Source: Solirubrobacterales bacterium
GTDB lineage: Bacteria > Actinomycetota > Thermoleophilia > Solirubrobacterales > Solirubrobacteraceae
Reading direction: 5' to 3'
NCBI GenBank assembly: GCA_003165655.1
Contig: PMOY01000375.1
Span: 1 to 40,028, forward strand
Length of the DNA stretch: 40,028 nt
In this document: positions 18,275-40,028 of the stretch, piece after piece
How the letters are laid out: every line of letters begins with the position of its first letter
Position numbering within the stretch: position 1 is the stretch's first letter
The notes under the pieces: generated by a model
What the model was told of the DNA's origin: nothing
What the model saw: the letters and a program-made list of their open reading frames with translations, nothing else
Databases searched by the model: none
Translations under genes and position numbers: made by a program

Positions 18275-21200
18275 TCAGGCGCTGCTGAAGCTGGTGAGGA
18301 ATCGGTGCTGGGCGCCGCGCCCCTGGGTGAGCTTCTTGTTGGCGATGCCGATTTCTTGGATGATGCCGTTGCGGACTTTGAGTACCCCTCGGCTGGCGAC
18401 GCCAGGGGCGATGTACCACTCGTAGCGGCCGATGTGGAAGGCCTTGCCGATCCCTAGCCGCTTGGCGACCCTCTTCAGTCGCATTCCGGGACGCGCTCTG
18501 TCGAGGGCGTAGTAGGGGTCCGAGGTCATCGCGAGCACGATCCGTCCCTTCACGCGGGTGCGCTCGCTTGCCGACAGCGTGCGGAGCAGCTTGGTCGAGG
18601 GGTAGCCGGCGTGAATGCCCCAGCCACCGAAGAGGCAGAAGTCGTCCAGGCCCTTGCTTGTCGTATATCGCTTGAGCTTCGCGCGCGCGTGCGTGCGCGT
18701 GAAACCGAGCTCGAGCGGACCGAGCGACACACCGTGCAGGCGGCCGCTGGGCTTGACGCACCTCAACGTTCCGGGTTCGGCGACGACGATCGCCGCGCTC
18801 GTCCCGGGCGTTCCGGTGCCGGCGGCGTTGGTGGCGGTGACCGTGCACGTCAGCGAACTGCCCTCGTCGGCGATCTGGACGGTATACGTAGCAGCCGAAG
18901 CGCCCCCAATCGGAAACCCGTTCCGGTTCCACTGGTAGACGAAGCCGGTCGGGCTGTTGCTCCAGGTTCCATTCGAGCAACTCAGCGTGTTCCCCGGGGT
19001 TGGCGTGCCCGTGATCACCGGCGCTCCCGTGGTCACCGGCGAGCCCGGCGGTGGCGGGGGTACGGGGACTCCGGCGCTCGTCGCCGGTCCGCCTGAGCCG
19101 GATCTGTTGGACGCGATCACGGTGCACGTCAGCGTGTGGCCTTGATCCGCGGCGCCGACCACGTAGTTCGAGTTCGTCGACCCCGGGATCGGCGACCCGT
19201 CGCGGTTCCACTGATACGTGAATTTGGTCGGCCCGTTGCTCCAGATGCCCTCTGAGCAGCTCAACGTCTGACCCACGCTCGGCGTCCCGGTGATCGTGGG
19301 CGCATCCGCGTTCGCCGGCGTCGGAAAGACGTCGAGTATCACACCGGCGGAGACGTAATCGGCGCTGTAGGCGCTCGCGCTCGGCCCCGTGAGCGTCAAC
19401 ACCCCGGTCGGCGTCGAAGTGGAACTGATGACCTTGAACGTAGCGCCCAGGGGCGGTGCGAAACCGTGGCCGTCAGTCAGGCGCAGGACGCCGCCCAGCG
19501 ACGTCGCACCGCCGACGCTCAGCTGGCTGAAGCCGCTGCCCGGCGTCGTTCCGTCGAGCACGATCGCCAGCGTCCCGCCCGCGCCCTGCGAATACTTGCC
19601 GGTCACCTTCAGCGCGCCGAGGGCGTCTCCTGGCGACACTGTGCCGGAATTGTTCGTCACCGGACCGTTGACCGTTCCTCTGCCGATGAGCGTGCCGCCG
19701 GTCAGGGTCGTCGATGAGGCGGTGACGGTGCCGTCGTCCCGCAGGGTGCCCTTGACCGTCAACGGACCGCTGAGGAGCTTGTTACCGCCGGCGACGGTCG
19801 TCGTCCCGCCTGCCAGCACGAGGCTATCGGCGCCGAACCCGCTCGTGCCGCCGCCCGGCACGACGCCGTCGGCGCTGAAGGTGGCGCCGCTCCCGCCGAT
19901 GTCCACCCCGGCGCCGAGCGCGATCGTGCTCGGCGTCGTCACGTGCGCATCTGTAGCGTCGAAGCCCGCGCCGGTGATGCTCACGGGGCCTGCGGCGGTG
20001 ATCGAGCCCCCGTCCAGGGACCCTGGACCGGATATCGAGAACGGGGTGCCGGTCTGGTCGATCGCGATCGGGCTGCTCGGGGAGACCGCGCCGCCGGTCC
20101 ACGCGAAGCCACCGAACACCGCGAGCGAACCCGGGCCATTGAGGGCGCCGGCGCCGATCGCGAGGTTGCCGATGCTTGCGCTGTCCCCGATGTCGAGTGC
20201 GCCGCCACTCACCGTCGTGTTCGTGGCGCTGTACGTGCCGCCGCCCGAGACCGCCAGTGCCCCTCCGGGCACGGCGACGCTACCGGTGGTGGAAAGCGCC
20301 CCGCCGCCCGCGACCGCCAGTGTGCCCTGGGCGACGACGACGCTGCCGGTGGAGAGTGTGCCGCCGGAGGCGATCGTGCTCGTCCCGCCGCCGCTCTTGG
20401 TGAAGGTTCCGGCGCCGGAGATGGTGCCCGAGATCGGACCGCCGCCGGCGCTCAGGTCCGAACCCGACGGTACCTTCAGCGTCGTGCCCGGGTCGGTGGT
20501 CAAGTACCCCAGGGTCAGTGTGCTACCTGCCGCAAGGCTGCTGCCCGCGCCCGCCGTCAAGTGAACGACGAACGACGGCGCCGTCACGTCGCCGCTCGTG
20601 CTCAGTCCCGCGGCGGTGACCGCCACGGAGCCACTCGTGAAACTGCCAGGCCCGACCGTGACGGTGCTCGACGTGGCCAGCGACGCACCGCCGGAGCCTT
20701 CGAAGTTCGGGTTGGTGATCGAGACCGGACTGGCGGTGGTGACCGATCCGCCGGCGAAGTCGGGAGTGGAGGCGGTTCCGTCGATCGCCAGCGCGCCGGC
20801 GTCGATCGCCATGCCCGAGCCAGGCGCACCGTTGAGCGTGGCGGGCCCGCTGCCCGACCCTCCCCAGTCGAAGCTGCCGGGGACGGTCAACGTCTGCCCG
20901 CTCGGACCGTCGAGCTCGCCGCCACCTTCCAGCGAGAGATCAGCGACGGTCGAGTCATCCGCGCCCGTGAGCGCGAGATCGCCGCCGGTGATGTCGAGAT
21001 CGCCGCCGGCCTGGATCGAATCGGCCGTGTCTCCCAGGGTGGAGACCGTTACCGTCGTCCCGGCGGGCCAGCACGCGACCTCGGTTCCGGTCGGAATCGC
21101 GTTGACCAGGGGCACGCCGTCGACTTCCCAGTTCGCGGGGTTCGACCAGTCGCCTGACGGCGAGATGAATTCGTCGAAGTTGGTGGCGGGGCAGGCGGGC

Positions 21201-21319
21201 TGTGCATCGGCGGTCGCGCTCAGCATCCCCGCGAGGACGAGCGCCGACGCCATGATCACAGCCACCAACACTGACCGCCGCCCGTGGCCGGACAGACGAT
21301 GTACGCGTGTACCCCTCAT
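18275..21319 (-). CDS. Large secreted beta-helix/Ig-like repeat protein with conserved C-terminal domain (paralog A)
   Basis: Signal peptide RRSVLVAVIMASALVLAGMLSATADAQ; G/S/T-rich autotransporter-like repeats; two Ig-like repeats (SVGQTLSCSEGIWSNGPTKFTYQWNRDGSPI...); C-terminal GTLRCVKPSGRLHGVSLGPLELGFTR...FLTSFSSA. Confidence 0.85.
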   Translation of the reverse strand: MRGTRVHRLSGHGRRSVLVAVIMASALVLAGMLSATADAQPACPATNFDEFISPSGDWSNPANWEVDGVPLVNAIPTGTEVACWPAGTTVTVSTLGDTADSIQAGGDLDITGGDLALTGADDSTVADLSLEGGGELDGPSGQTLTVPGSFDWGGSGSGPATLNGAPGSGMAIDAGALAIDGTASTPDFAGGSVTTASPVSITNPNFEGSGGASLATSSTVTVGPGSFTSGSVAVTAAGLSTSGDVTAPSFVVHLTAGAGSSLAAGSTLTLGYLTTDPGTTLKVPSGSDLSAGGGPISGTISGAGTFTKSGGGTSTIASGGTLSTGSVVVAQGTLAVAGGGALSTTGSVAVPGGALAVSGGGTYSATNTTVSGGALDIGDSASIGNLAIGAGALNGPGSLAVFGGFAWTGGAVSPSSPIAIDQTGTPFSISGPGSLDGGSITAAGPVSITGAGFDATDAHVTTPSTIALGAGVDIGGSGATFSADGVVPGGGTSGFGADSLVLAGGTTTVAGGNKLLSGPLTVKGTLRDDGTVTASSTTLTGGTLIGRGTVNGPVTNNSGTVSPGDALGALKVTGKYSQGAGGTLAIVLDGTTPGSGFSQLSVGGATSLGGVLRLTDGHGFAPPLGATFKVISSTSTPTGVLTLTGPSASAYSADYVSAGVILDVFPTPANADAPTITGTPSVGQTLSCSEGIWSNGPTKFTYQWNRDGSPIPGSTNSNYVVGAADQGHTLTCTVIASNRSGSGGPATSAGVPVPPPPPGSPVTTGAPVITGTPTPGNTLSCSNGTWSNSPTGFVYQWNRNGFPIGGASAATYTVQIADEGSSLTCTVTATNAAGTGTPGTSAAIVVAEPGTLRCVKPSGRLHGVSLGPLELGFTRTHARAKLKRYTTSKGLDDFCLFGGWGIHAGYPSTKLLRTLSASERTRVKGRIVLAMTSDPYYALDRARPGMRLKRVAKRLGIGKAFHIGRYEWYIAPGVASRGVLKVRNGIIQEIGIANKKLTQGRGAQHRFLTSFSSA

Positions 21320-21458
21320 TCGGCCCCTTCTCGCACGACAGGACGCGGTGAGTCTACGGTTCTGGAGCGCCGCATGCACCACCAGCCGTCCGCGCGCGGT
21401 CGATTCCAGCGAACCACCGGCGGCCGCGGCGGCCCGCGCGACCCGACGCGGTCAGGCC

Positions 21459-24400
21459 TCAGGCGCCGCTGAAGCTCGTGAGGAACGACTGCTGGGCGGC
21501 GCGTCCGTGGGTGAGCTGCAGGCTGGCGATCCCGATTTCTTGGATGATCCCGCCGCGAACCCTGAGCACACCCTGGCCGGCCGTGCCGGCGGCGATGTAC
21601 CAGTAGTTGCGGCCGATGTGGAAGCTCTTGCCGACCTTGAGCCTCTTTGCCACCGCGCTGAGTCGCATCCCGGGGCGTGCCCCGTTCAAGGCGTAGAAGG
21701 GGTTCGAGGTCAGCGCGAGCACGATCCGCCCCGTCACGCGTCCGCGCTCGCTCGCGGAAAGGCTGCGGAGCAGCTTGCTCGACGGGTAGCCGGCGTGGAC
21801 GCCCCAACCGCCGTACAAACAGAAGTCCTCGACGCTGCCGGCCGCTGAATAGCGGCTCAGCTTGCGGTGCGCGCGCGCGCGCGTGAACCCGAGTGCGAGC
21901 GGACCGAGGGAGCCACCGCCGAGCCGGCCGGTGGGCTTCGGGCACGAGAGCGTCCCGGGCTCGGCGACGATGATCGCGGCGCTCGTCTTCGGCCTCCCGG
22001 CGCCGGCCGCGGTCAATGCCGTCACGGTGCACGTGAGCGGACTGCCCTCTTCGGCGATCTGGACCGTGGAGGTCGCGCCCGTCGCCCCCGCGATCGGTAA
22101 CCCGTTCCGGTCCCACTGATACTTGAAGGCGGTCGGGCCGGCGGTCCAGATCCCGCGCGAGCAGCTCAGAGTGTTTCCCGGGGTCGGCGTCCCCGTGACC
22201 GTCGGCGCCACGGTGTTGGTCGGCGCGCCGGGCGCCGGCGGCGCTACCGGTGGCGGCGCAGGCGGGGCGGGCACCGACACCCCGGAGCTTGTCGCCGAGT
22301 CGCCTGAGCCCTGTTCGTTGGCCGCGGTCACGGTGCACGTGAGCGAGTCGCCCCGGTCTGCCGCCACGACCAGATACGTCTGGCCGGTGGCGCCCGAGAT
22401 TGGCGAACCGTCCCGGTTCCATTGATACGTGAACGCAGTCGGGTAAGCGCTCCATTTGCCCTCTGAGCAGCTCAACGTCTGACCCACACTCGGCGTCCCG
22501 GTAATGGCCGGTGCCACCGCGCTCCCCGGCGCCCGATTGACCTCGAGCGTGACGTCATTCGAGTCGTACACAGCGGCGTAGGAGCCTGCGCCCGACCCTG
22601 TGAGCGTGAACGCCCCTCCAAGCGATGAACTGGAACTGATGATCTCGAACGTGTCGGCCGGCGGCTCGGGTATGAAGCCGCTCCCGTCCGTGAGTGCGAG
22701 ATCACCCTTCAGCGAAGTGGTGCCGCCAACCCTGAGCTGGCTGAAGCCGCTCCCGGCTGTTGTCCCATCGAGCTCGATCGCAAGCGTCCCGCCGCTGTCC
22801 TGCTGATAGGTGCCACCGACGCTCAGCACGCCGGGAGCGCCGTCACCAGGCGAGACCGTCCCGGACGCGTTCGTCACCGCGTGGTCGACCGTCCCGGTAC
22901 CGTCGAGCGTGCCGCCCGTAAGCGTCGTCGAGGAGGGGTCGACGGTGCCGTCGTCCTGGACAGTGCCGCCCTGGACCGTCAGCGCACCGCTGGTCAGAGT
23001 ACTGCCGCTCGGCACCGTCGTCGCTCCGCCCGTCAGCACGAGGCTGTTGCCGCCGAACCCGTACGTTTGCGCTCCTGTCCCCGTTGCGTTGACACCGGCT
23101 GCCGTGAAGGTGGCCCCACCGGTCCCACCGATATCCACACCGGAGCCGAGCGTGATCGTGCTCGTCGTGGTCAGGATCGGCGCGCCCGAGGTGTCGAAGT
23201 GCGTACTGGTGATGCTCACGGGGCTCGTGGTCGTGAGCGAGCCGCCGTCCACGGACGGGGTACCGGTGCCGGAGATCGAGAACCCGGCTCCGGTCTGAGC
23301 GATCGCCAGATCGCCGCCACCGGCGTTGATCGTGCCGCCGCCGCTCCACCCGAGGAGACCCGTGACGGCCAACGTGTTGCCGTCGCTCCCGTTCAGCTCC
23401 CCACCGCCTGTGAGCGACAGATTGCCAGTCGTACCGCTGGCTCTGAGGTCCAGCGTGCCGGAGCCGATCGTGGTCTCGATCGCGGCGTCGTAGGCGGCGT
23501 CGCCGTCGACGGTGAGACCGCCCCCGCCCAGGTCGACGCCGGCGGTTGAGAGGTCGCCGCCGTTCTCGATCACGGTCGTACCGCTGCCGCCGCTCGCCGC
23601 CGTGAACGTGCCCGCGCCGGTGATCGCTCCCGAGATTGCTCCCGAGCCTGCGTTCAGCGCCACCCCGGCCGGCACCGTCAGCGTCGTGCCGGCGTCGGTG
23701 ATCAGATCCTCCACGTTCAGCGTGCCGGCAAGGCTGCTCGCGCCGGTCGTCAGGTGAAGAGCGAAGCCCAGCACCGAGCTCGTCGCGCCGGTGGTGGTGA
23801 TCGTCGGGGCGGTGATCGTCCCGGGCGAGCTGCTCGCCGCCAGGTCGGCGGTGTCGAACGTGACTCCCGCGTTCGCGTTCAACACCGGTGCGCCCGTGTC
23901 GGTGAGGTCTGAGCCGCTGATCGTGACCGGGCTGGCGGTCGAGATCGACCCGCCGCCCCACGCCGCGGCGCCCTCGATGGTCAAGCCGGCTCCGGTGGTC
24001 TGGCTGATCTTCAGCGCGTCATCCGGGCCGTCGTTCAGTCGCGTAGCGCCGCCGCTCGTCCCATCCCAGTCGAAGCCCCCGTCGACGGTCAGTCGCTGGC
24101 CTAGGCCACCCAGATTGCCGCCGTCGCTCAGCGACAGCGCATCGCCGCCCGGGGCGTTCGTCGATGTCGAGATGACCGAGTCATTCGCGGCCGTGGCCGA
24201 GTCGAGTGTCAGCTCGCCACCGTTGATGTCGAGTGCGCCCCCCTGGACCGACGCCACGGTCTCATCGCCGCTGCTCAGCGTGACCGTCGTCCCCGTGCTC
24301 CAGCACGCAATCGAGCCCGAACCGGGGACGGCGGGCAACCAGGTCCCGCCGCCGTTCCACTCGCCGCTGTTCCCGCTGGTCGGGGTGAAGACATCGCTCC

Positions 24401-25703
24401 CTGACGGGCAGTTCGCAGGCGGGACTAAAGCCGTCAAGGTGACTCCTGAGCCGCCGTAAGCGGGGAGGTAGGTGCCGGCGCTGGGCCCGCTGAGGTTGAA
24501 GGTGCCCGATGACCCGGAGCCGTAGGTGAGGATCTCGAAGGTACTGCCCGTCGCGGGTGCAGAGCCGGTGTCGGTCAACGAGAGGTCGCCGCCGAGCGTT
24601 GCCGTGCCGCTCACCGTCAGCTGGCTGAAGTCGGTGCCGGGTGTGGTGTAGCCCGTGAGCTCGATCACGAGCGTCCCGCCGCTGTCCTGCTCATAGGTGC
24701 CACCGATGCTCAGCACGCCGGGAGCGCCATCACCAGGCGACACCGTCCCGGAGGTATTCCTCACCGGCCCGTCGACCGTGCCCGTGCCGTCGAGCGTACC
24801 GCCCGTGAGCGTCATCGACGAGGGGTCGACGGTGCCGTCGTCCTGCACGGTGCCGCCCTGGACCGTCAGGGGACCGCTGGCCAGGGTGTTGCCGCCCGAC
24901 ACCGTCGTCGCCCCGCCCGTCAGCACGAGGCTGTCGCTGCCAAACCCGTAGGTGCCGGTCGTGCCGGTGCCGGCGACGACACCGGCTGCCGCGAAGGTGG
25001 CCCCACCTGTCCCACCGATGTCCACACCGGATCCGAGCGTGATCGTGCTCGTTGTGCTCAGTGTTGGCGCATTCGCGGTCTCGAAGTTCGCGTTGGTGAT
25101 CGAGACCGGGCTGCCGATGGTGATCGAGCCGCCGAGGAACTCAGGCGTGGAAGTGGTTCCGTCGACTGTCAACGAGCCGGTGGTAATCGCCAGGTTCGAG
25201 CCAGGGACGGTCGCGTTGTTGTCGAGGGCCGCGACCCCTGTGCCCGACCCTCCCCAGTCGAAGCTGCCCTCGACCGTCAACGTCGGAGCGCTCGTAACGT
25301 CTGGACCGTCAAGCTCGCCGCCACCTTCCAGCGAGAGATCACCGACGGTCGAGTCATCCGTCGATGACGTCAGCGCCAGCACGCCGCCGCTGACGACGTC
25401 GAGATCCCCATCGGCCTGGATCGAATCGACGCTTTCGCCGTCCGAGACTGTCACCGTCGTGCCGGCGTCCCAGCACGCGACCTCGGTCCCCGACGGAGGA
25501 GCAAGCAGCGACCAGTTGGTGCCCACCGACCAGTCGCCGGACGTTGCGGTGTATTGGTCGAAGTTGCCGGCGGGACACGTCGCCTGCGCACCCGCCGTCG
25601 CGCTGAGCACGCTCGCGAGGGATATCGCCGCGATACTCCCCGCCACCAGCGCCAGAACCCAACGCCTGAACCCGCACAGACGGTCTGCGCGTGCACCCCT
25701 CAT
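21459..25703 (-). CDS. Large secreted beta-helix/Ig-like repeat protein with conserved C-terminal domain (paralog B)
   Basis: Signal peptide RRWVLALVAGSIAAISLASVLSATAGAQ; two beta-helix modules in series; two Ig-like repeats; C-terminal GTLSCPKPTGRLGGGSLGPLALGFTR...FLTSFSGA aligns with paralog A throughout. Confidence 0.87.
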   Translation of the reverse strand: MRGARADRLCGFRRWVLALVAGSIAAISLASVLSATAGAQATCPAGNFDQYTATSGDWSVGTNWSLLAPPSGTEVACWDAGTTVTVSDGESVDSIQADGDLDVVSGGVLALTSSTDDSTVGDLSLEGGGELDGPDVTSAPTLTVEGSFDWGGSGTGVAALDNNATVPGSNLAITTGSLTVDGTTSTPEFLGGSITIGSPVSITNANFETANAPTLSTTSTITLGSGVDIGGTGGATFAAAGVVAGTGTTGTYGFGSDSLVLTGGATTVSGGNTLASGPLTVQGGTVQDDGTVDPSSMTLTGGTLDGTGTVDGPVRNTSGTVSPGDGAPGVLSIGGTYEQDSGGTLVIELTGYTTPGTDFSQLTVSGTATLGGDLSLTDTGSAPATGSTFEILTYGSGSSGTFNLSGPSAGTYLPAYGGSGVTLTALVPPANCPSGSDVFTPTSGNSGEWNGGGTWLPAVPGSGSIACWSTGTTVTLSSGDETVASVQGGALDINGGELTLDSATAANDSVISTSTNAPGGDALSLSDGGNLGGLGQRLTVDGGFDWDGTSGGATRLNDGPDDALKISQTTGAGLTIEGAAAWGGGSISTASPVTISGSDLTDTGAPVLNANAGVTFDTADLAASSSPGTITAPTITTTGATSSVLGFALHLTTGASSLAGTLNVEDLITDAGTTLTVPAGVALNAGSGAISGAITGAGTFTAASGGSGTTVIENGGDLSTAGVDLGGGGLTVDGDAAYDAAIETTIGSGTLDLRASGTTGNLSLTGGGELNGSDGNTLAVTGLLGWSGGGTINAGGGDLAIAQTGAGFSISGTGTPSVDGGSLTTTSPVSITSTHFDTSGAPILTTTSTITLGSGVDIGGTGGATFTAAGVNATGTGAQTYGFGGNSLVLTGGATTVPSGSTLTSGALTVQGGTVQDDGTVDPSSTTLTGGTLDGTGTVDHAVTNASGTVSPGDGAPGVLSVGGTYQQDSGGTLAIELDGTTAGSGFSQLRVGGTTSLKGDLALTDGSGFIPEPPADTFEIISSSSSLGGAFTLTGSGAGSYAAVYDSNDVTLEVNRAPGSAVAPAITGTPSVGQTLSCSEGKWSAYPTAFTYQWNRDGSPISGATGQTYLVVAADRGDSLTCTVTAANEQGSGDSATSSGVSVPAPPAPPPVAPPAPGAPTNTVAPTVTGTPTPGNTLSCSRGIWTAGPTAFKYQWDRNGLPIAGATGATSTVQIAEEGSPLTCTVTALTAAGAGRPKTSAAIIVAEPGTLSCPKPTGRLGGGSLGPLALGFTRARAHRKLSRYSAAGSVEDFCLYGGWGVHAGYPSSKLLRSLSASERGRVTGRIVLALTSNPFYALNGARPGMRLSAVAKRLKVGKSFHIGRNYWYIAAGTAGQGVLRVRGGIIQEIGIASLQLTHGRAAQQSFLTSFSGA
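22793..23050 (-). repeat. Internal direct repeat of paralog B, copy 1
   Basis: ccgctgtcctgctgataggtgccaccgacgctcagcacgccgggagcgcc... closely matches 24680-24945. Confidence 0.7.
24680..24945 (-). repeat. Internal direct repeat of paralog B, copy 2
   Basis: ccgctgtcctgctcataggtgccaccgatgctcagcacgccgggagcgcc... about 1.9 kb from copy 1. Confidence 0.7.
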
Positions 25704-30314: not shown

Positions 30315-30797
30315 GTGGGCACACCCGCTGTCGCGCGACGGGTGGTCGCTCTGCTCATGCTCGCCGCGCTGGTGGCCGGGTGTGGGGCCGATACGAAGGG
30401 CGATTTCGTTGCGCGCGCCAATGCGATCTGCGCGAGCACCGTGCGCGAGACGCGCTCGATCGCGCCGCCGAGCTTCACCCACTCCAAGGCGCAGCAGCTG
30501 AGGGCCCTCGCCGGCTACCTGGCCAGCGTGTTGCCGGTCGTGCAGTCGGAGGCGACTCAGCTTCACGCTCTGCGGCGTCCCACCGAGGTCGCTCACGATC
30601 GTGCCGCGCTCGCGCGCTACCTCAGCGCCGTGACCCAGGTCCTCGGCGACTACCGGGAGCTCGCTGCGGCAGCGAAGCGCGGTGATGCCCGAGGCGTGGC
30701 GAGCGCCGAGGCGGCATTGAGGGCCAGTCCGGTCACCTCGCTCGCCGCCGCCTACGGGCTGCGCTCGTGTGGAAGCCCGGGGGCGACCGTCGCCTGA
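30315..30797 (+). CDS. Putative lipoprotein of unknown function
   Basis: GTG start; signal VARRVVALLMLAALVAGCGAD with lipobox LVAGC. Confidence 0.7.
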   Translation: MGTPAVARRVVALLMLAALVAGCGADTKGDFVARANAICASTVRETRSIAPPSFTHSKAQQLRALAGYLASVLPVVQSEATQLHALRRPTEVAHDRAALARYLSAVTQVLGDYRELAAAAKRGDARGVASAEAALRASPVTSLAAAYGLRSCGSPGATVA

Positions 30798-31777
30798 GGG
30801 CGAGCCCCTGCTCGTGGGGGCGACGCGAGCACCCCGTCCGCCGCGGGGAGCGGGAACTGGGCGCCGCCGAGGACGCGGACGCGGACGGTGTCTCCCGGCC
30901 GGGGAGCCGGGAGCGGCGCGACCGTGTAGAGCCGTCCGCGCTCGAGCTCGAGCTCGAGGCGGACGCCGTCTTCGAGCGGGACGGCGCGTGTCACGCGGGC
31001 CGACAGGGGGCCGGCGGGATCGAGCGTGACGTGCGCCGGTCGCGTGAGCAACATCTCGCCGGCGTCCTGCAGCGATCCGTCGAAGCCGAGAAAGCGCGCC
31101 ACCGCCGTGCTTGGTGGATGCTCGAGCAGCTCGCGGGGAGGGCCCGCGGCGACGAGCTCACCGGCGATGAGGATGAACAGACGATCGGCGAGCGCCCACG
31201 CCTCGGCCCGGTCGTGGACGACGACGAGGGTCGCCCTGGTCCCCGAACGCAGTGCGGAGACGGCGTCCTCGAGCAGGTTCGCGCGCGTCTCGGCATCGAG
31301 GCCGGCGAACGGCTCGTCGAGCATGAGGATGTCGGGGCGTACCGCGAGTGCCCGAGCGAGGTGAACGCGGCGCCGCTCACCGCCTGAGAGGGCCCCGGCG
31401 GGACGCTGCGCGAGGTGCTCGGCGCCCATTGCGCGGAGGGCCTCGCGCGCGCGCACTGCCCGCTCGGAACGCGGAACGCCCCACCACGCGAGCGCGAGCA
31501 TCACGTTCGCGAGGACGCTGCGGCGGGCCAGGTCGGGAGCCTGGAGCGCGATCGCCACGCGGCCATGGCGCTCGATCTGCCCTTGCGCGGGTGCGAGGAC
31601 ACCCCCGAGCGCGTCAAGCAGCGTGCTCTTGCCGGCGCCGTTCGGTCCGAGCAGCGCGACGAGCTCACCCACGCGAAGCTCGACGCTGACATCACGCACG
31701 ACCTCGCGATCCCCGCGACGGACGCTTACGTGCTTGCAGCGAAGCAACACCTCGCCGGTTGCAGACGCGTCGCTCAC
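30752..31777 (-). CDS. ABC transporter ATP-binding protein (tungstate/molybdate type)
   Basis: GPNGAGKST, LSGGERRRVHLARALAV, ILMLDEPFAGLD, C-terminal TOBE-like extension. Confidence 0.88.
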   Translation of the reverse strand: MSDASATGEVLLRCKHVSVRRGDREVVRDVSVELRVGELVALLGPNGAGKSTLLDALGGVLAPAQGQIERHGRVAIALQAPDLARRSVLANVMLALAWWGVPRSERAVRAREALRAMGAEHLAQRPAGALSGGERRRVHLARALAVRPDILMLDEPFAGLDAETRANLLEDAVSALRSGTRATLVVVHDRAEAWALADRLFILIAGELVAAGPPRELLEHPPSTAVARFLGFDGSLQDAGEMLLTRPAHVTLDPAGPLSARVTRAVPLEDGVRLELELERGRLYTVAPLPAPRPGDTVRVRVLGGAQFPLPAADGVLASPPRAGARPQATVAPGLPHERSP

Positions 31778-32496
31778 GTTACGGACCGGAAGCGCAGACG
31801 GATGCCGCCGCCGCGCTGCTGAAGCACCCCGAGGCCGCCCATGAGGATGAGGATGAGCCCGATCAGCACGATGCCGATCGCGATGGCTTGGGCGTAACGA
31901 GCCGCGTTGGCATCAAACAGGATCGCGCTCGCCAGCGTCTGATCGAAGCCATAGACGTTGCCTCCGACGATGACGATGGCTCCGACCTCGGAGAGCGCGG
32001 ATCCGAGCGCGGCGATCACGGCGGCCAGCACACCGATCCTCGCTTCGCGCACCGCGAGCGCGTAGAGCTGAGCTCGCCCGGCGCCGAGGGCCCGGGCTTG
32101 AGCCAAGAGCCCGGGCGGGAGTCCCTGGACCGCGGCGGCGGTGAGCGCGACGATATACGGGAGCGCCAGGAGCGTCTGCGCGATGAACACGGCCTTCTTG
32201 GACAAGATGAGGTTGTACCCGCCGAGCGGGCCTTGCGGGACGAACAGCAGGAACAGGAAGAGACCGGCGAGCACCGGCGGCAGACCGAGGCTCGCGTTGG
32301 CCAGGATCTGCAGCACGCGCCTGCCGCGGAAGCGCCCGAGCCCGATCGTCAGTCCGATCGGCAGTCCGATCGCGGCCGCCACCACCGTCGCCACCACGGC
32401 AACCTGAACCGTGAACCAGATGATGCTGAGGAGGTAAGGATTCCCGTGGAAGATGAGCGGCACGGCAACCTTCAGCTCCTCCCACCACAGTCGCAT
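31774..32496 (-). CDS. ABC transporter permease, TupB-like (permease 2)
   Basis: MRLWWEELKVAVPLIFHGNPYLLSIIWFTVQVAVVATVVAAAIGLPIGLTIGLGRFRGRRVLQILANASLGLPPVLAGL...ALGSALSEVGAIVIVGGNVYGFDQTLASAI. Confidence 0.88.
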   Translation of the reverse strand: MRLWWEELKVAVPLIFHGNPYLLSIIWFTVQVAVVATVVAAAIGLPIGLTIGLGRFRGRRVLQILANASLGLPPVLAGLFLFLLFVPQGPLGGYNLILSKKAVFIAQTLLALPYIVALTAAAVQGLPPGLLAQARALGAGRAQLYALAVREARIGVLAAVIAALGSALSEVGAIVIVGGNVYGFDQTLASAILFDANAARYAQAIAIGIVLIGLILILMGGLGVLQQRGGGIRLRFRSVT

Positions 32497-32532
32497 CTCA
32501 GTGGCTCTGCCGGCGGGGGGCGGACGCGTCGG

Positions 32533-33258
32533 TCATGTCGAGGTCCGGAAGCGCAGCTGGATGCCACCGGTGCGTTGTTGAAGCACGGTGAGGACGCCGA
32601 TGAGCACGAGGATCAACGCGAGCAGCACGAGTCCGATCGCCACCGCGTTCGGGTAGTCGGCGTAGTTGCTGACCTGCGCGACGACGGCGCTCGCGAGCGT
32701 CTGGTCGTAGTTCTCGATGTTGCCGCCGACGATGATCACCGCTCCGACTTCCGAGAGCGCGGAGCCGAGGGCTGCGATCACCGCTGCGATCACCCCGATC
32801 TTCGCTTCGCGGAGCGCCAGCAGCGAGAGCTGGCGTCGTCCGGCGCCGAGCACTCGCGCTTGGGCGAGCAGCCCGGGCGGAAGTGCCTGGATCGCGGCGG
32901 CGCTCAGCGCGACGATATACGGGAGCGCGAGGATGGTCTGCGCGACATACACGCCGCGCAGCGTGAACTCAATGCGCAGTCCCCCGAACAGGCCTTGCGG
33001 GAGGAGAAAGATCAACACGACAACACCGACGAGCACGGGCGGGAGGGCGAGGCTCACGTTCGCGAGGACGTGCAACGCACGTCGACCGCGGAAGCGCCCG
33101 AGACCGATCGTCAGACCGATCGGCAGGCCGAGCACGAGCGCGACCCCGGTGGAGACGAGAGCAACCTTGATCGTTACCCACGTCACGCTGAGGATGTAGG
33201 CGTTTCCGCTCGTGATCAGCGGGAACGCGCTGCGCAGCTCGTGCCAGAGATACCCCAC
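32533..33258 (-). CDS. ABC transporter permease, TupB-like (permease 1)
   Basis: MGYLWHELRSAFPLITSGNAYILSVTWVTIKVALVSTGVALVLGLPIGLTIGLGRFRGRRALHVLANVSLALPPVLVGV...ALGSALSEVGAVIIVGGNIENYDQTLASAV; GTG start abutting the upstream stop. Confidence 0.88.
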   Translation of the reverse strand: MGYLWHELRSAFPLITSGNAYILSVTWVTIKVALVSTGVALVLGLPIGLTIGLGRFRGRRALHVLANVSLALPPVLVGVVVLIFLLPQGLFGGLRIEFTLRGVYVAQTILALPYIVALSAAAIQALPPGLLAQARVLGAGRRQLSLLALREAKIGVIAAVIAALGSALSEVGAVIIVGGNIENYDQTLASAVVAQVSNYADYPNAVAIGLVLLALILVLIGVLTVLQQRTGGIQLRFRTST

Positions 33259-33594
33259 TCAATGCTTCCTCTGGCGGGGGGCCTGCTGAACGTAGACGAG
33301 CTGTCCGTTGGCGAGGCGATAGACGTTTCCTGCCAACGTGCCGGGACCGATCGTCCGCGCGCCCGGTTTTGGCAGCGGTGCGACCGTCTGTCCGGGCTGG
33401 ATCTCGATCACCTTGGCTGCGTTCTCGCGCAGTCCGTGGCGGGTGATCGTCCCCGCGAGGTGCAGCGAAGAGAGGGCTGCGAGCAGGAACGCGACCGAGA
33501 GCACGATACCGAGGTCGAAGAGGTTGACGAGACCGTCGAGCGGGTCGCCGGCTCGGTCTCCGCGGTTGTGGGCTTGCGGGGTGACCGAGATCAT
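33259..33594 (-). CDS. DUF2149-like small single-TM protein
   Basis: DPLDGLVNLFDLGIVLSVAFLLAALSSLHLAG plus short soluble C-terminus; ATGA overlap with the upstream ExbB-like gene. Confidence 0.75.
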   Translation of the reverse strand: MISVTPQAHNRGDRAGDPLDGLVNLFDLGIVLSVAFLLAALSSLHLAGTITRHGLRENAAKVIEIQPGQTVAPLPKPGARTIGPGTLAGNVYRLANGQLVYVQQAPRQRKH

Positions 33595-34313
33595 GTTGCT
33601 CCTTCGATCGAATGCGGTTCGCTGATGAGCGTTGCCGTGGGCTGCGGGTCGCGGATAACCGCCCCGGTGGGGCGCGGGTCGCTGATCACTGCTGCGAGGT
33701 ACTGAAGATCGGAGAGGTCCTGGCCGTACATGCGGTCACGCGAGAGCGAGAGCCCGAACGCGACCGCGCCGATCATCAGCCCGACGACGGTCACGCTGAA
33801 GGCTACGCGGAGGTCCTGGCTGAGCGCGGACGTGTTGCCGTTGGCGAGTCCCGTGAGCGCCGGGGACAGCGGGATCAGCGTTCCCATCAGCCCGAGCGCC
33901 GGACCGGCGCGAACGAGCAGCCGGGTGCGCCCGAGCCGGCGCTGCGCATCGAAGTCGAAGTCCGCGAGCGCCTTGTTGATCTGATGATCACTCCCGGCCG
34001 TGCGCGCATTCTCGACGATGAACGCGAGCGTGTCGGCCATCGCCTGGCTCCGCGCGAGCCCGCTCACGGCCGCGGCGGCGCCCACCCGATCGTTCGCCAG
34101 GAGCGCGAGACGCGCCCGCTCGGCATCGACCGAAAGCGTCGCGAAACGCCGCCGTCGGCGACCGCGCACCTCGATCACGTAACTGCCGAGCTCAAAGATG
34201 ACGAGCGCGAGCGCGAGCAGCGCGAGGAGCAGCACGGGCACCTGCAGGGCGCTCGCGACGTGGAAGATCGCCTCATCGATGTCGTGGGTGCCCAGGGCGG
34301 CGATGACGAGCAC
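33591..34313 (-). CDS. MotA/TolQ/ExbB proton-channel family protein
   Basis: N-terminal TM, then RTRLLVRAGPALGLMGTLIPLSPALTGLANGNTSALSQDLRVAFSVTVVGLMIGAVAFGLSLSRDR, characteristic ExbB/MotA TM pair. Confidence 0.85.
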   Translation of the reverse strand: MLVIAALGTHDIDEAIFHVASALQVPVLLLALLALALVIFELGSYVIEVRGRRRRRFATLSVDAERARLALLANDRVGAAAAVSGLARSQAMADTLAFIVENARTAGSDHQINKALADFDFDAQRRLGRTRLLVRAGPALGLMGTLIPLSPALTGLANGNTSALSQDLRVAFSVTVVGLMIGAVAFGLSLSRDRMYGQDLSDLQYLAAVISDPRPTGAVIRDPQPTATLISEPHSIEGAT

Positions 34314-34322
34314 GAGCGGGTC

Positions 34323-35816
34323 TCAGCTACCGAAGCGCACCGCGCGCCAACCGCGCCGCCCGCGCAGCTCGCGCCCGGCACCGAGGCTGAACAGGACGAA
34401 GACGGCGAATCCCGCCACGAGGGGGGGTAGCAGCGAGGGGTTGGCCGATCGTCGCACCGCCGGAGCGGTGGCGAGGGCGCCGGGCACGGCGTGCACGAGC
34501 GGGCTCTCGCCGGCCGGCAGCGGTGTCACGTCACTGACCAGGCGTCCGACGATGCGCGGCGCCTGCGGGGCTGTGTTCCTCGCCGGTGGCGCCGGCGCCC
34601 TGACGGGTGTGGTGCGGTGCCCACCGGACTGCTTCGGCGTGGCTGCGGGGTGACGGCTCGTGGTCGCGCTCTCTCCCGGGGACGAGCCCGACACCCCCGC
34701 GGTGCTGGAGGTGCCAGACGTGCCCTTCGATGCGGGCGTCGTGCCGTGATCGGCTGACCCCGGCTTGTCGGTGTGCGTGCCCGACGTAGCAGGCTTCGGG
34801 CTCCCGCGCTTACCTGAGGTCGTGCCCTTGACCGGGTGATGTCCCTTCTTGCCCCCGGCGACGTTACCGTTGCTTGACGTGGGTCCGGTCGGCGCCGTCG
34901 ACGTCGTCGCCGGCGTGGTCGCCGCGTTGACGGTGATCGGGATTGTCGTCCCGCCACTGCCGCCGTCGGGGTCGGTGACCTCGACCGTGACGTCGTACGT
35001 GCCCGCGCTGGCGAACGGCACCTGAGGAGTCGACGCCGTCGAAGTCGGCGCCGCACCGTCGAAGTTCCAGCTGTACGAGAGCGTCGACGGCGTCCCGCCA
35101 CCTGCCTCGGTCACCGTCGCACTGAAGCTGACAGTGGCTCCGGCGCTGACCGCATCGCTGGCGGGGTTGGCCACGACGTTGAGATGCGGTCCCTCGAACA
35201 CCTGGATCTCCAGGGGCGACGGGTCTGGCTCTGTGACCTTGTCGTTGTAGTTGTTGTCGGTTCCGCCGCGCCACGGGCGCAGGTAGGTGATGTTGTCCCC
35301 GTCGCTGAAGACCAGGGGAGCCTCCTGATTATTGGCAAAGTCGGTGGGGGCGACCAGGTCGCCAGGGAGGAGTTGCGAGCCCTCGGACTCCTCCGGGGCT
35401 CCATCCACATTGGTGACGGTGACTCCGGTGATGGCGCTGATGTTGACGGGGTCCTGGAGGCATTTCAGTACGGTCGCGAGGGACCACGCTAAGCTGTCCT
35501 GGAACCCCACGGCCTGGAGAACGGACCCGTTTGATCCATACAGGTCGACGGGGTTGGGGCCGGAGTAGGTCGGGCATCCGGAGTTCGCCTCCAGATCGGC
35601 GATCGAGACGGAGTCAGACGTGACCCCGCTCGATTGATAGATCTGCGCGCTCACGGTCTGGCCGGAGTTCTCGTCGGCCACTGCAACACCGCCCGAGCAC
35701 GCCAGTGAGACCACCGCGAGCACGAGCGTCAACGCGAACCGCCGCCCCGGGACGATCCCGGGACGGCGGCTGGCTGGCCGGCTCTGTTCGTCGAAGCGAA
35801 TTCGCTGGCGCCTCAC
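34323..35816 (-). CDS. PKD-domain surface protein with S/T/P/G-rich stalk and C-terminal TM anchor
   Basis: Signal RRFALTLVLAVVSLACSGGVAVA; PKD SAGATVSFSATVTEAGGGTPSTLSYSWNFDGAAPTSTASTPQVPFASAGTYDVTVEVTDPDGG; TM PPLVAGFAVFVLFSLGAGRELRGRRGWR. GTG 35816. Confidence 0.82.
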   Translation of the reverse strand: MRRQRIRFDEQSRPASRRPGIVPGRRFALTLVLAVVSLACSGGVAVADENSGQTVSAQIYQSSGVTSDSVSIADLEANSGCPTYSGPNPVDLYGSNGSVLQAVGFQDSLAWSLATVLKCLQDPVNISAITGVTVTNVDGAPEESEGSQLLPGDLVAPTDFANNQEAPLVFSDGDNITYLRPWRGGTDNNYNDKVTEPDPSPLEIQVFEGPHLNVVANPASDAVSAGATVSFSATVTEAGGGTPSTLSYSWNFDGAAPTSTASTPQVPFASAGTYDVTVEVTDPDGGSGGTTIPITVNAATTPATTSTAPTGPTSSNGNVAGGKKGHHPVKGTTSGKRGSPKPATSGTHTDKPGSADHGTTPASKGTSGTSSTAGVSGSSPGESATTSRHPAATPKQSGGHRTTPVRAPAPPARNTAPQAPRIVGRLVSDVTPLPAGESPLVHAVPGALATAPAVRRSANPSLLPPLVAGFAVFVLFSLGAGRELRGRRGWRAVRFGS

Positions 35817-35821
35817 GCGGC

Positions 35822-37651
35822 CTAGTGTACGGCGATCGATCTCACCTTCGAGTAGACCGACGTGTGGCCCTTCTGGACGTACTCGAGCTGCAGTACCCAT
35901 CGGAATCCACGCGCGAGCTTCGCCTTGATCTTGAACGTCGTCTTATCCGTCCCGAGGGACGTATGGCCGACCTCCTTGAATGAGGCACCTCCCGTGCGCA
36001 GAGCCAGGAGCTCGATGCGCGCGCCCTTCGTGCTCGGCGGCGGCACGAGCGTCCCGGTCACCGTGAGCGCGCCCCTCTTGACCGTCACCTTCTTGAAGCC
36101 GATGGACCCCGAGGTGCCAAGGCCCTTCACGGTCAGCTTCGCCGCGGTTGACGCGCCCGGCGACAGGATGTCGGAGTAGACCGGACTGAGGGTGGCGTTC
36201 TCGATCTGGGTGATCTGACCCGTCGAGACCTGATAGGAGCCGCTCGAGGTCGGCACGAACGCGATCTTGTAATCGCCGGTCGCGTTCGTCTTTCCGCTGG
36301 CGACGGCCACCGGTAGCCCGGCCTCGATCTCGTCGAGCGTGACCGTCTTACCTGCGAGCACCGGATAGCCGACTTCGGCGTTTGTCACGCTTCCGGTCAC
36401 CGTCACCGACTTCCCCACGCCAATGTTATGGGGGATGCCCGTTGCGGTGATGATCGGCGAGGCATCGGCCACGAACGGCGGGCCGCCGCCCGGGTCATTG
36501 TCGGCAGGCGAGCCGTCCAGGTAGTACTTCAGCTGTGATTGGACGGCCGGCGAGGTGAGGAAGTTGACGAAGTCCTGAGCCGCGGCCAGATTGACCGGCT
36601 CCTTCGTCGTCCCCCCCACCACGGTTGCCGCCGGGTTGACGATATAGGCGTGGAAGTAGTTGATCAGCTTGTATGCGCCTCCGGGGGCGGCGGCGCTGTT
36701 GTCACGGGTGAGGATCGAGAGGTTGGGGATGGCGCCGGCCGGATCCAACCCGGATGACAGGTAGTCAAACGTGCCGCGGTCAGTCAAGACGTAGCAGGTG
36801 TTGACGGGGCTGGCGTAACCGGTGCAGGCGTTGGTGGCGATCACGGTCGGGCCCTGGCCCGTCGTTGTGCCGATGTACCACGATGGGAAGTCCGTGGCGG
36901 GCGGAAGCCCGTCGTTCCCGCCGGCGGGGCATGGGTCGCCGGATGCGGCGACGACGCCCGCTTTGACCGGCGTCTCGCCACCGCCGATGGCAGCGGGGAC
37001 CGTGCAGAGGACCAGACCCGGCGGCGGGCTGGCCTGCTGGCCGACCAGTGACCAGATCGAGTGCTCCTCGACGGACGTACCCGACCCGCTGTCGCGGGCG
37101 ACGAACGTCGCCTTGGGAGCGCCTCCCCCGTTGAACCCGGCCGTCGCGACGTCCGCGAACGCTTGGACGATGTTGTTCGGCGCGTTCTTCGACACCCCGG
37201 CAGGATCGGTGACCGGTCCGGCGAAGACGAAGTCGTTGCGGAAGATGGCGAGGCCGGCGGGCAGGTAGGAGAACCCGTCCGCGACGAATTGGTTCTCGAT
37301 CGACGCGGCGTGGACGATCAGGATGCTCGCGCCCTCGGAGCCGGTCTCGACGTCGGTGATCGCCTCACCCGTGGCCGTGCCGATGTACTTGAAGGTGAAC
37401 TGCGGGTAGGCTGCGTGGAACTCCGGCTGGATCACGTTCTGCATGAGGCCGGAGTCGCTCACGTCGCTGGTGCCGACGGCCGTGAGGGTCGTCGAGGTGT
37501 CGGCGCTCGCGAGCGCGGGGGCGAGCAGCGCCGCCGCGGCGAATAAAATGCCGAGAAGAGGTACTGCGAGAAACCGGCGCACAGCGCCGGAGCGGCGAGG
37601 AACGTCGCCGGGCCGCACGAGGCGGCGAAGGGAAGGTGGGGTTTCGCTCAT
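35822..37651 (-). CDS. TupA/PstS-like substrate-binding protein fused to C-terminal Ig-like region
   Basis: VGTSDVSDSGLMQNVIQPEFHAAYPQFTFKYIGTATGEAITDVETGSEGASILIVHAASIENQFVADGF...RNDFVFAGPVTDPAGV resembles TupA motifs; C-terminal VTVTGSVTNAEVGYPVLAGKTVTLDEIEAG. Confidence 0.85.
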   Translation of the reverse strand: MSETPPSLRRLVRPGDVPRRSGAVRRFLAVPLLGILFAAAALLAPALASADTSTTLTAVGTSDVSDSGLMQNVIQPEFHAAYPQFTFKYIGTATGEAITDVETGSEGASILIVHAASIENQFVADGFSYLPAGLAIFRNDFVFAGPVTDPAGVSKNAPNNIVQAFADVATAGFNGGGAPKATFVARDSGSGTSVEEHSIWSLVGQQASPPPGLVLCTVPAAIGGGETPVKAGVVAASGDPCPAGGNDGLPPATDFPSWYIGTTTGQGPTVIATNACTGYASPVNTCYVLTDRGTFDYLSSGLDPAGAIPNLSILTRDNSAAAPGGAYKLINYFHAYIVNPAATVVGGTTKEPVNLAAAQDFVNFLTSPAVQSQLKYYLDGSPADNDPGGGPPFVADASPIITATGIPHNIGVGKSVTVTGSVTNAEVGYPVLAGKTVTLDEIEAGLPVAVASGKTNATGDYKIAFVPTSSGSYQVSTGQITQIENATLSPVYSDILSPGASTAAKLTVKGLGTSGSIGFKKVTVKRGALTVTGTLVPPPSTKGARIELLALRTGGASFKEVGHTSLGTDKTTFKIKAKLARGFRWVLQLEYVQKGHTSVYSKVRSIAVH

Positions 37652-37672
37652 CGCGCCACTATATAGGTATTT

Positions 37673-37705
37673 CATAGGTCTGCGGCGCTTTGCATAAGTC
37701 TGCGG
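37673..37705 (-). promoter_or_regulatory. Two direct repeats (CATARGTCTGCGG, 20-bp spacing) upstream of the Tup/ExbB operon
   Basis: cataggtctgcgg (37673-37685) and cataagtctgcgg (37693-37705); a TATATAG tract lies between them and ATG 37651. Confidence 0.65.
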
Positions 37706-37756
37706 TGAATCGCCGTCGGCGGAGCCGGTCGAGGGTGGCGAGCCCTCGCGCGTCGC

Positions 37757-38205
37757 TCACTCGCCGTCGGGTCGGCACGGGGTGAGGGCGTGGTCGAAGG
37801 CGAAGATGACGGCCGCTGCTCGGTTGCGGAGATCCAGCTTGGCGAAGATGTGGTTGACGTGCGTCTTGACTGTCCTGCGCTGACGACCAGCTCACCGGCG
37901 ATCTCGGCGTTCGTCCGTCCGGCACCGATCAGGGCGAGCACCTCCCGCTCCCGGGCGGTCAGCGCCGCCAGGCCGTCGTCGTCGCGAGCCGGTAACACAG
38001 GCGCCTCGCGGTAGACCGCGAGGACGCGGCTCGTCACGCTCGGGTCGAGCCACCGCGCCGCCCTCGGCCACGACGCGAACCGTCTGCTGGAGGTCGGCCG
38101 CCGGAACGCCATTGAGCACGAAGCCCGACGCGCCCGCCCGGAGCATGCCGGCGAGCGCTTCGTCGTCGTCGAAGGTCGTGAGCAACCTCACCCTCGCGCA
38201 CATCG
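37757..38205 (-). pseudogene. NarL-type response regulator remnant with two frameshifts and truncated receiver
   Basis: RVRLLTTFDDDEALAGMLRAGASGFVLNGVPAADLQQTVRVVAEGGA | RWLDPSVTSRVLAVYREAPVLPARDDDGLAALTAREREVLALIGAGRTNAEIAGELVVS | RTVKTHVNHIFAKLDLRNRAAAVIFAFDHALTPCRPDGE*, in three reading frames. Confidence 0.85.
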
Positions 38206-38285
38206 AGGTCCACCCCATCGACGACCGGGCGTCCGCCATAGGACTTGCACAGGCTCCGGACTGTCACTACGTCGTTAGTAATCAT
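38184..38285 (-). pseudogene. N-terminal fragment of an ABC transporter ATP-binding protein
   Basis: MITNDVVTVRSLCKSYGGRPVVDGVDLDVREGEV; no Walker A follows and the sequence passes into the response-regulator remnant. Confidence 0.75.
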
Positions 38286-39436: not shown

Positions 39437-39793
39437 CTATGCGGCCTTCGCGGTGTCGTGCTCGCGCACTCGGGAAAGGACGTGAGGTTCTGGCTGACCG
39501 CCATGATCTGGCGTGACGCGCCATACGGCGCGCTGGCCGGTCGCGAAATCGCCTTGGACCAGGCCGGCGACTCGACGGTTACGGAGCCCGGTGGCGAAGT
39601 CTCCGATTGTCATCCGGATTGGTGTGCTTCTCATGCCCGTGGCGAAATCGCCGCGCGGGCTAGCGTCTGGCTGAGACGGCGAACGTCGACAGCCGGCTGC
39701 GAAGTCACCGTCGTAACACCGGTCATGAGTGTTAGTGCCGGGGCCGCCGTTTGCGGCCAGCGAGTATTGCGAGGACAACGGATGTGCCTCCAT
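39437..39793 (-). CDS. Small protein with four GDFATGxR-type repeats, function unknown
   Basis: MEAHPLSSQYSLAANGGPGTNTHDRCYDGDFAAGCRRSPSQPDASPRGDFATGMRSTPIRMTIGDFATGLRNRRVAGLVQGDFATGQRAVWRV...; ATG 39793 preceded by GGAGGT at 8-9 nt; repeats differ mainly at synonymous positions. Confidence 0.65.
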   Translation of the reverse strand: MEAHPLSSQYSLAANGGPGTNTHDRCYDGDFAAGCRRSPSQPDASPRGDFATGMRSTPIRMTIGDFATGLRNRRVAGLVQGDFATGQRAVWRVTPDHGGQPEPHVLSRVREHDTAKAA

Positions 39794-40028
39794 TCCAACT
39801 ACCTCCACTAATCGGGGTGGAATAGAAGCCATCAGCGGCGGCGCCGCATTCAGAGCGAGCTTCATCGCTCAAGTCGAACATAGCACAGCTGGTTGACCAC
39901 ACCAAGAAACTGAGTAGTGACGTTCGTCACAATCACTGGAGGGAACGCCGGCGCGTCCTGGTGACGCAACGAACCGGTGTCTGTTACCGATCGAAGTGCA
40001 CGACTCTTAGTGCTGTCGGTCGTAAATC

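What the first reader, a model, noticed from the sequence alone, without database searches (positions are those of the whole stretch)
30752..37705. Seven-gene operon coupling a Tup-type ABC importer to an ExbB/MotA channel, a DUF2149-like protein and a PKD surface protein
Seen: seven collinear minus-strand genes packed end to end (ATGA overlap at 33591-33594, TGA/GTG abutment at 33258-33261, 4-bp overlap at 31774-31777): TupA-like SBP with Ig-like tail, PKD protein with TM anchor, ExbB/MotA/TolQ protein, DUF2149-like small TM protein, two TupB-like permeases, ABC ATPase. Established: TupABC imports tungstate/molybdate using ATP; ExbB-type channels use proton motive force and work with a single-TM ExbD-like partner to drive surface or periplasmic machinery. 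Inference: the DUF2149-like protein takes the ExbD role and the PKD/Ig modules form an extracellular capture or gating device, giving an oxyanion importer powered by both pmf and ATP.
Basis: partly seen in the sequence, partly recalled or inferred. Interest (0 to 1): 0.88.

Follow-up and report, generated by a model that had tools for sequence, protein, structure and literature searches.

The report
Proton-motor surface module on metal importer
Soil actinobacteria that appear to have only one membrane carry a conserved operon joining an ATP-driven importer resembling tungstate transporters to a TonB-type proton motor and a surface protein, which suggests that such motors help feed importers even in cells where no outer membrane is known.

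Summary
In detail: seven tightly packed minus-strand genes encode a TupA-like binding protein, a PKD surface protein with a C-terminal membrane helix, an ExbB/MotA protein, a DUF2149 protein, two TupB-like permeases and an ATPase. The order SBP-PKD-ExbB-DUF2149-TupB-ATPase recurs in 17 loci in Solirubrobacterales and in records named Frankiaceae, Microbacteriaceae and Nocardioides. A single clade for the Tup-linked ExbB/DUF2149 pairs is rejected (p = 6e-5). DUF2149 is the likely ExbD substitute: its helix and invariant Asp align with ExbD D25 and TolR D23 better than any of 162 control proteins, and no ExbD was found in 151 related genomes. The same pair also sits beside heme-type and cobalt-type importers. 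The protein encoded just upstream of ExbB nearly always ends in a membrane helix with a G-x-x-x-E motif, in PKD proteins and in unrelated toroid proteins alike (45 of 49 against 0 of 36 controls). I read this as a docking helix for interchangeable capture domains. Tungstate as substrate is unproven: NCBIfam TupA scores 41 bits against a cut-off of 400, and the TTTS motif has changed. Coupled pmf and ATP drive remains inference. New variant of a known kind.

The parts
35822..37675 (-). TupA-like substrate-binding protein with a C-terminal Ig-like/CarboxypepD_reg-like tail; predicted signal peptide cleaved after A-x-A, no lipobox
   Evidence: Pfam PBP_like_2 E 2.6e-18; best PDB match tungstate-binding protein 3lr1 E 1.3e-13; NCBIfam TupA 41 bits vs cut-off 400; family motif comparison; N- and C-termini
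34323..35816 (-). PKD surface protein: signal peptide, conserved N-terminal beta-rich domain, PKD domain, low-complexity linker, C-terminal membrane helix (start GTG 35816 likely; longest ORF starts 35900)
   Evidence: Pfam PKD E 2.7e-10; 36-member alignment A1; AF2 mean pLDDT 88; start candidates
34368..34433 (-). C-terminal membrane helix of the PKD protein ending in G-A-G-R-E (GxxxE, codons 34368-34382), proposed docking helix
   Evidence: GxxxE in 35/37 PKD and 10/12 toroid proteins with a C-terminal TM, 0/36 control proteins
33591..34313 (-). ExbB/TolQ/MotA-type protein; T145 (33879-33881) and T175 (33789-33791) invariant in 74 relatives
   Evidence: Pfam MotA_ExbB E 9.5e-8; conservation table; only MotA_ExbB hit in the genome
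33259..33594 (-). DUF2149 protein: short N-terminus, one membrane helix starting at NLFD (D27, 33514-33516), small C-terminal domain; ExbD-like partner
   Evidence: Pfam DUF2149 E 9.4e-13; D27 in 74/75 relatives; hhalign to ExbD and TolR with control
32533..33258 (-). TupB-like permease 1
   Evidence: NCBIfam ABC_perm1 151 bits (above cut-off 100), TupB 108 bits (below 320)
31774..32496 (-). TupB-like permease 2 (second permease only in the window's own clade; the other lineages have one)
   Evidence: NCBIfam ABC_perm1 168 bits, TupB 116 bits
30752..31777 (-). ABC ATPase with C-terminal TOBE-like extension
   Evidence: Pfam ABC_tran E 8.4e-28, TOBE_2 E 0.0011 below cut-off

Best explanation
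The operon encodes an ABC importer of the TupABC/ModABC type joined to a pmf-driven surface-capture module. EXB (ExbB-like) and the DUF2149 protein (ExbD-like, with an essential-looking Asp at the start of its membrane helix) form the proton motor in the cell membrane. The PKD protein docks onto that motor through its C-terminal GxxxE helix and carries an extracellular arm (N-terminal domain, PKD domain, flexible linker). The motor moves or re-sets this arm so that it holds or loads the secreted, non-lipidated binding protein, or pulls ligand out of the wall matrix, and hands the ligand to the TupB-like permeases, which import it using ATP. Shown: the genes, their coupling, conservation of the order across lineages, motor residues, lack of a detected alternative partner, and the shared GxxxE helix. 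Inferred: docking, movement, hand-over, and the ligand (probably an oxyanion or other small metal species, not necessarily tungstate).
For: Gene order conserved in 17 Tup-linked loci, with ExbB>DUF2149 and DUF2149>TupB junctions mostly -4 to +2 nt. Of 13 relatives carrying this SBP, 10 have DUF2149 on the same contig, 2 have contigs that break just after SBP-PKD, 1 lacks it. The Tup-linked pairs are not one clade (p-AU 6e-5; at least 3 changes forced), so the link was kept or made repeatedly. DUF2149 D27 aligns with ExbD D25 and TolR D23, and 0 of 162 control TM proteins score as high. EXB keeps two invariant Thr at positions matching ExbB T148/T181 (the E. coli numbering is from my own knowledge). 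No ExbD in 151 relatives and one MotA/ExbB protein in the genome. GxxxE helix in the gene just upstream of ExbB in two unrelated surface families. HmuU/HmuV, the same pair, is described as ExbB/ExbD-like and pmf-linked in heme uptake (PMC10100974, PMC12583661).
Against: The PKD-ExbB-DUF2149 trio occurs without a recognised ABC importer in 12 of 74 loci, and the bare ExbB-DUF2149 pair in 10, so the motor does not need the importer. One Tup-linked locus (L112) lacks the PKD gene. No structure of the complex could be predicted. AF2 of DUF2149 alone is weak (pLDDT 72). Another SBP in the genome also lacks a lipobox, so the tether idea has no specific support. No expression or transport data exist.
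Confidence: 0.5

Rival explanations
1. The PKD-ExbB-DUF2149 trio is an independent cell-envelope machine (a Tol-like or wall-remodelling motor) that shares regulation with metal importers because both respond to the same starvation or stress, without physical coupling to transport.
For: Trio without a recognised importer in 12 of 74 loci and bare pair in 10; the trio also sits beside different importers (FecCD type, CbiQ type).
Against: DUF2149>TupB translational coupling (-4 to +2 nt) kept in most Tup lineages. Where recognised, the neighbours are repeatedly metal or cofactor importers (Tup 17, heme/FecCD 12, CbiQ 4 of 74 loci), and the same pair is tied to heme uptake in Bacteroidota.
Confidence: 0.28
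2. ExbB-DUF2149 is a sensor: proton flow or ligand-bound PKD protein sets a conformational signal (gene regulation or gating of the permease) rather than doing mechanical work.
For: A surface protein is encoded directly upstream of the channel gene in most loci.
Against: No cytoplasmic signalling domain in EXB or DUF2149; no regulator gene sits inside the window's operon.
Confidence: 0.1
3. Vestigial, non-functional remnants of a Ton system, as suggested for incomplete Ton systems seen in monoderms.
For: PMC12204202 states that incomplete Ton systems in Actinobacteria are likely non-functional.
Against: Motor residues, DUF2149 D27 and PKD GxxxE are kept across deep divergence, with tight operon coupling. 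DUF2149 is a separate family from ExbD (no PF02472 in relatives), so this is not a decayed ExbD.
Confidence: 0.05

Closest known systems
HmuU/HmuV (MotA/TolQ/ExbB + DUF2149) of the hmuYRSTUV heme operon, Porphyromonas/Bacteroides
   Same: Same two families, adjacent; described as ExbB/ExbD-like and linked to pmf-driven uptake (PMC10100974, PMC12583661, PMC10434189)
   Different: There it serves an outer-membrane TonB-dependent receptor and a chelatase (HmuS); here it sits with a PKD surface protein and an ABC importer in Actinomycetota. PMC10100974 calls HmuV diagnostic of heme transport and not used for other ligands, which this locus contradicts at family level
TupABC tungstate ABC importer
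   Same: SBP, permease and ATPase homologous to TupA/TupB and relatives; H59, R118, T124 and D170 equivalents kept
   Different: SBP and permeases below NCBIfam equivalog cut-offs; TTTS motif changed to GT[S/T]D; Ig-like tail; two permease genes in the window's clade; motor genes inside the operon
ExbB-ExbD-TonB / TolQ-TolR-TolA
   Same: ExbB-type protein; partner with one N-terminal helix and an Asp at its start; a separate bitopic protein reaching outward
   Different: DUF2149 is not in the ExbD family (PF02472 absent in relatives); the reaching protein is anchored by its C-terminus, not its N-terminus; no outer-membrane receptor seen in the operon

Membership tests
TupABC tungstate importer | SBP above the NCBIfam TupA equivalog cut-off (400 bits) | tested here: not met
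   41.3 bits
TupABC tungstate importer | TTTS oxyanion motif in lobe A | tested here: not met
   GTSD in the window; GT[S/T]D or STTD/STTS in the other members of the 17-sequence set; motif from PMC5517513
TupABC tungstate importer | H59, R118, T124, D170 ligand-site residues | tested here: met
   Equivalents invariant in 17 sequences
TupABC tungstate importer | Binding of tungstate with pM affinity | not testable with these tools
   Needs ITC
MotA/TolQ/ExbB family | PF01618 above gathering score | tested here: met
   32.3 bits vs 22.9
MotA/TolQ/ExbB family | Two pore Thr in the second and third membrane helices | tested here: met
   T145 and T175 invariant in 74 sequences; match to ExbB T148/T181 is from own knowledge
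DUF2149 (HmuV-like) | PF09919 above gathering score | tested here: met
   48.8 bits vs 27.1
ExbD/TolR family (PF02472) | PF02472 match | tested here: not met
   No PF02472 match in own genome or 151 relatives
ExbD/TolR family (PF02472) | Asp at the start of the single membrane helix | tested here: met
   D27 in 74/75; aligns with ExbD D25 and TolR D23. Works like ExbD; not filed as a member
Ton system | TonB protein and TonB-dependent outer-membrane receptor | not tested
   None seen in the operon; the genome was not searched for TonB families
hmu heme operon | HmuS (CobN-like), HmuR and HmuY next to the pair | tested here: not met
   None in the operon

The most novel reading that the evidence does not exclude
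Actinomycetota without a known outer membrane have a modular counterpart of the Ton system: one ExbB-DUF2149 proton motor drives interchangeable surface capture proteins (PKD type, toroid type), all docked by a C-terminal GxxxE membrane helix, and feeds different ABC or ECF importers (Tup-like, heme/FecCD, cobalt/cobalamin).
Probability: 0.4. Interest if true: 0.9.

Novelty: new variant of a known kind. Interest (0 to 1): 0.7.

Why it matters
ExbB-type motors of the Ton and Tol systems are explained by the need to energise an outer membrane. A conserved motor tied to ATP-driven importers in cells where no outer membrane is known would show that pmf can power ligand capture through a cell wall, would give DUF2149 a role, and would contradict the published view that HmuV/DUF2149 is specific to heme. 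The GxxxE helix gives a single residue to mutate to test docking, and incomplete Ton-like systems in monoderms would no longer need to be called vestigial.

Tried and rejected
(1) CobN/HmuS neighbour: the two large ORFs at 18275-25703 were checked as possible CobN; they match Ig domains, not CobN. (2) Sulfite-oxidase-like (SUOX) fold for the PKD protein's N-terminal domain: Foldseek listed SUOX entries (TMq about 0.3) and a pterin-binding protein appeared at E about 1, but hhalign against E. coli MsrP gave probability 0.6% and there was no Pfam hit; not claimed. (3) DUF2149 against PDB: no relative. (4) Missing lipobox as evidence that the PKD protein tethers the SBP: the SBPs lack one, but so does another SBP of the same genome, so it does not discriminate. 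(5) Promoter and terminator scans found nothing above chance. (6) Plasmid records: no DUF2149 relative. (7) A search of the held papers found no description of an ExbB motor joined to a Tup-type importer.
Full report
Observation. The junctions are tight: SBP>PKD +5 nt with the likely GTG start at 35816, PKD>ExbB +9, ExbB>DUF2149 -4, DUF2149>TupB1 0, TupB1>TupB2 +36, TupB2>ATPase -4. The window is contig C307 of a 4.2-Mb assembly, about 76% complete, in 434 contigs, so statements that something is absent from this genome are provisional.

Conservation. A scan with DUF2149 found 42 of 151 related genomes, 13 of 397 spread over the phylum and 66 further loci in public genomes. Profile labelling of those loci shows ExbB next to DUF2149 in practically all. 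In 74 distinct loci the surroundings fall into: Tup-type importer 17, heme/FecCD-type 12, PKD protein without recognised importer 12, toroid protein without recognised importer 10, CbiQ (ECF cobalt type) 4, bare pair 10, contig too short 9. The 17 Tup loci, where the contig covers the region, keep the order SBP-PKD-ExbB-DUF2149-TupB(-TupB)-ATPase; one (L112) lacks the PKD gene. They come from Solirubrobacterales and from records named Frankiaceae (a metagenome bin), Microbacteriaceae (Frondihabitans, Galbitalea) and Nocardioides. The overlaps recur: ExbB>DUF2149 is -4 in 12 of 14 loci checked and DUF2149>TupB lies between -4 and +2 in 12 of 14.

The converse test. The window's SBP was sought in 151 relatives: 13 genomes have it. 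In 10 DUF2149 is on the same contig, in 2 the contig breaks just after SBP-PKD, and in 1 (G043) there is no DUF2149. A tree of ExbB+DUF2149 needs at least 3 changes of the Tup label on well-supported branches, and holding all Tup-linked rows as one clade is rejected, p-AU 6e-5. The quick tree has long branches, so the exact number of gains and losses is open; either the link is old and was lost several times, or it was made more than once.

DUF2149 as the ExbD substitute. The helix begins D-P-L-D-G-L-V-N-L-F-D, and D27 is present in 74 of 75 relatives. A profile of 67 DUF2149 sequences aligned by hhalign to E. coli ExbD and TolR puts D27 on ExbD D25 and TolR D23. In a control with 162 other proteins having an N-terminal membrane helix from the same loci, the best score was 21.9, against 25.6 for ExbD and 29.3 for TolR. 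The similarity covers only the helix region, so this supports a like role rather than proven descent. No ExbD (PF02472) was found in the genome or in 151 relatives, and the window's ExbB is the only MotA/ExbB-family protein found in its genome. ExbB keeps two invariant Thr, T145 and T175, in 74 relatives, in the positions of ExbB T148 and T181 (numbering from own knowledge). For the same pair in Bacteroides, PMC10100974 describes HmuU and HmuV as like ExbB and ExbD.

A shared docking helix. The gene directly upstream of ExbB encodes, in most loci, a surface protein with a C-terminal membrane helix that ends in G-x-x-x-E (window...FVLFSLGAGRELRGRR). The motif is in 35 of 37 PKD proteins with such a helix and, strikingly, in 10 of 12 unrelated alpha/alpha-toroid proteins (SQHop/prenyltransferase-like fold) that take the PKD protein's place in Patulibacter, Conexibacter and related loci. 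It is in 0 of 36 other proteins of the same loci with a C-terminal membrane helix. The members of each family are related, so the Fisher value (7e-20) overstates the case; the independent point is that two unrelated families share it. The more distant DUF2149 clade (L098-L103) lacks it. I interpret it as the helix that docks exchangeable surface modules on the motor. This is inference.

The PKD protein. It has a signal peptide, a conserved N-terminal beta-rich domain, one PKD domain, a Pro/Ser/Thr-rich linker and the helix. AF2 of the N-domain plus PKD is good (mean pLDDT 88). PDB matches are PKD domains; hints of a sulfite-oxidase-like fold in the N-domain were not supported by hhalign to MsrP.

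The importer. The SBP is nearest to TupA structures (3lr1, E 1e-13) but scores 41 bits against the NCBIfam TupA cut-off of 400; the permeases pass the broad ABC_perm1 model and fail the TupB one. Against the TupA ligand site described in PMC5517513, the equivalents of H59, R118, T124 and D170 are invariant in 17 sequences, while TTTS has become GT[S/T]D in most. An Asp in place of the serine suggests a changed ligand. So the substrate is left open: a small oxyanion or other metal species, not certainly tungstate. The window's clade has two permease genes; the other lineages have one.

How it most likely works. EXB and DUF2149 form a proton motor; the PKD protein docks to it by the GxxxE helix; the motor drives the extracellular arm to hold, load or release ligand or the secreted SBP; TupB-like permeases and the ATPase import the ligand with ATP. 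Genes, order, residues and the helix are shown; docking, movement and hand-over are inferred. The strongest counter-evidence is that the trio or bare pair also occurs with no recognised importer nearby (22 of 74 loci), so an independent envelope role remains possible.

Relation to the literature. PMC10100974 proposes that HmuV (DUF2149) is diagnostic of heme transport and not used for other ligands; the Tup-linked loci contradict this at the level of the family. PMC12204202 regards incomplete Ton systems in Actinobacteria as likely non-functional; the conserved residues and operon coupling here argue against that for DUF2149 systems. That these bacteria lack an outer membrane rests on general knowledge of Actinomycetota and was not tested. 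I found no paper in the held library that describes an ExbB motor joined to a Tup-type importer.

Verdict. Observation confirmed; interpretation partly supported and extended. New variant of a known kind.

Noticed in passing
L069, L074, L076, L079, L084, L089, L093, L096 (gene upstream of ExbB): Unrelated alpha/alpha-toroid (intrinsic-factor-like fold) surface proteins carry the same GxxxE C-terminal helix as the PKD proteins
   Followed up: yes
L049, L050, L067, L075, L085, L092, L124: PKD and ExbB-DUF2149 genes beside a FecCD/Peripla_BP_2 ABC importer and/or a HugZ-like (CREG/DUF2470) protein: a probable heme version of the same system in Actinomycetota
   Followed up: partly
L077, L081, L082, L069: ExbB-DUF2149 beside CbiQ and an ABC ATPase (ECF type), mostly with a toroid protein: a probable cobalt or cobalamin version
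   Followed up: partly
L043, L066 and relatives: Bare ExbB-DUF2149 pair with no surface protein next to it; in L043 a metH (B12-dependent methionine synthase) gene lies directly upstream on the other strand
   Followed up: partly
window 37672-38285, - strand: Broken pieces that look like a LuxR/NarL-type response regulator and the N-terminus of an ABC ATPase just upstream of the operon: probable pseudogene remnants (judged by eye)
   Followed up: no
window 18275-21382 and 21459-25703, - strand: Two very large proteins (1035 and 1414 aa) with Ig_2 domains, probably surface proteins
   Followed up: partly
window 39437-39865, - strand: ORF with repeated GDFATG(x)R motifs of unknown meaning
   Followed up: no
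window EXB C-terminus, about 33591-33690: Imperfect tandem repeat (VISDPRPTGA / VIRDPQPTAT / LISEPHS) at the ExbB C-terminus; that part of the protein is poorly conserved in relatives
   Followed up: no
L150 (G043): TupA-like SBP without the motor genes has an uncleaved-looking N-terminal membrane helix instead of a cleavable signal peptide
   Followed up: no
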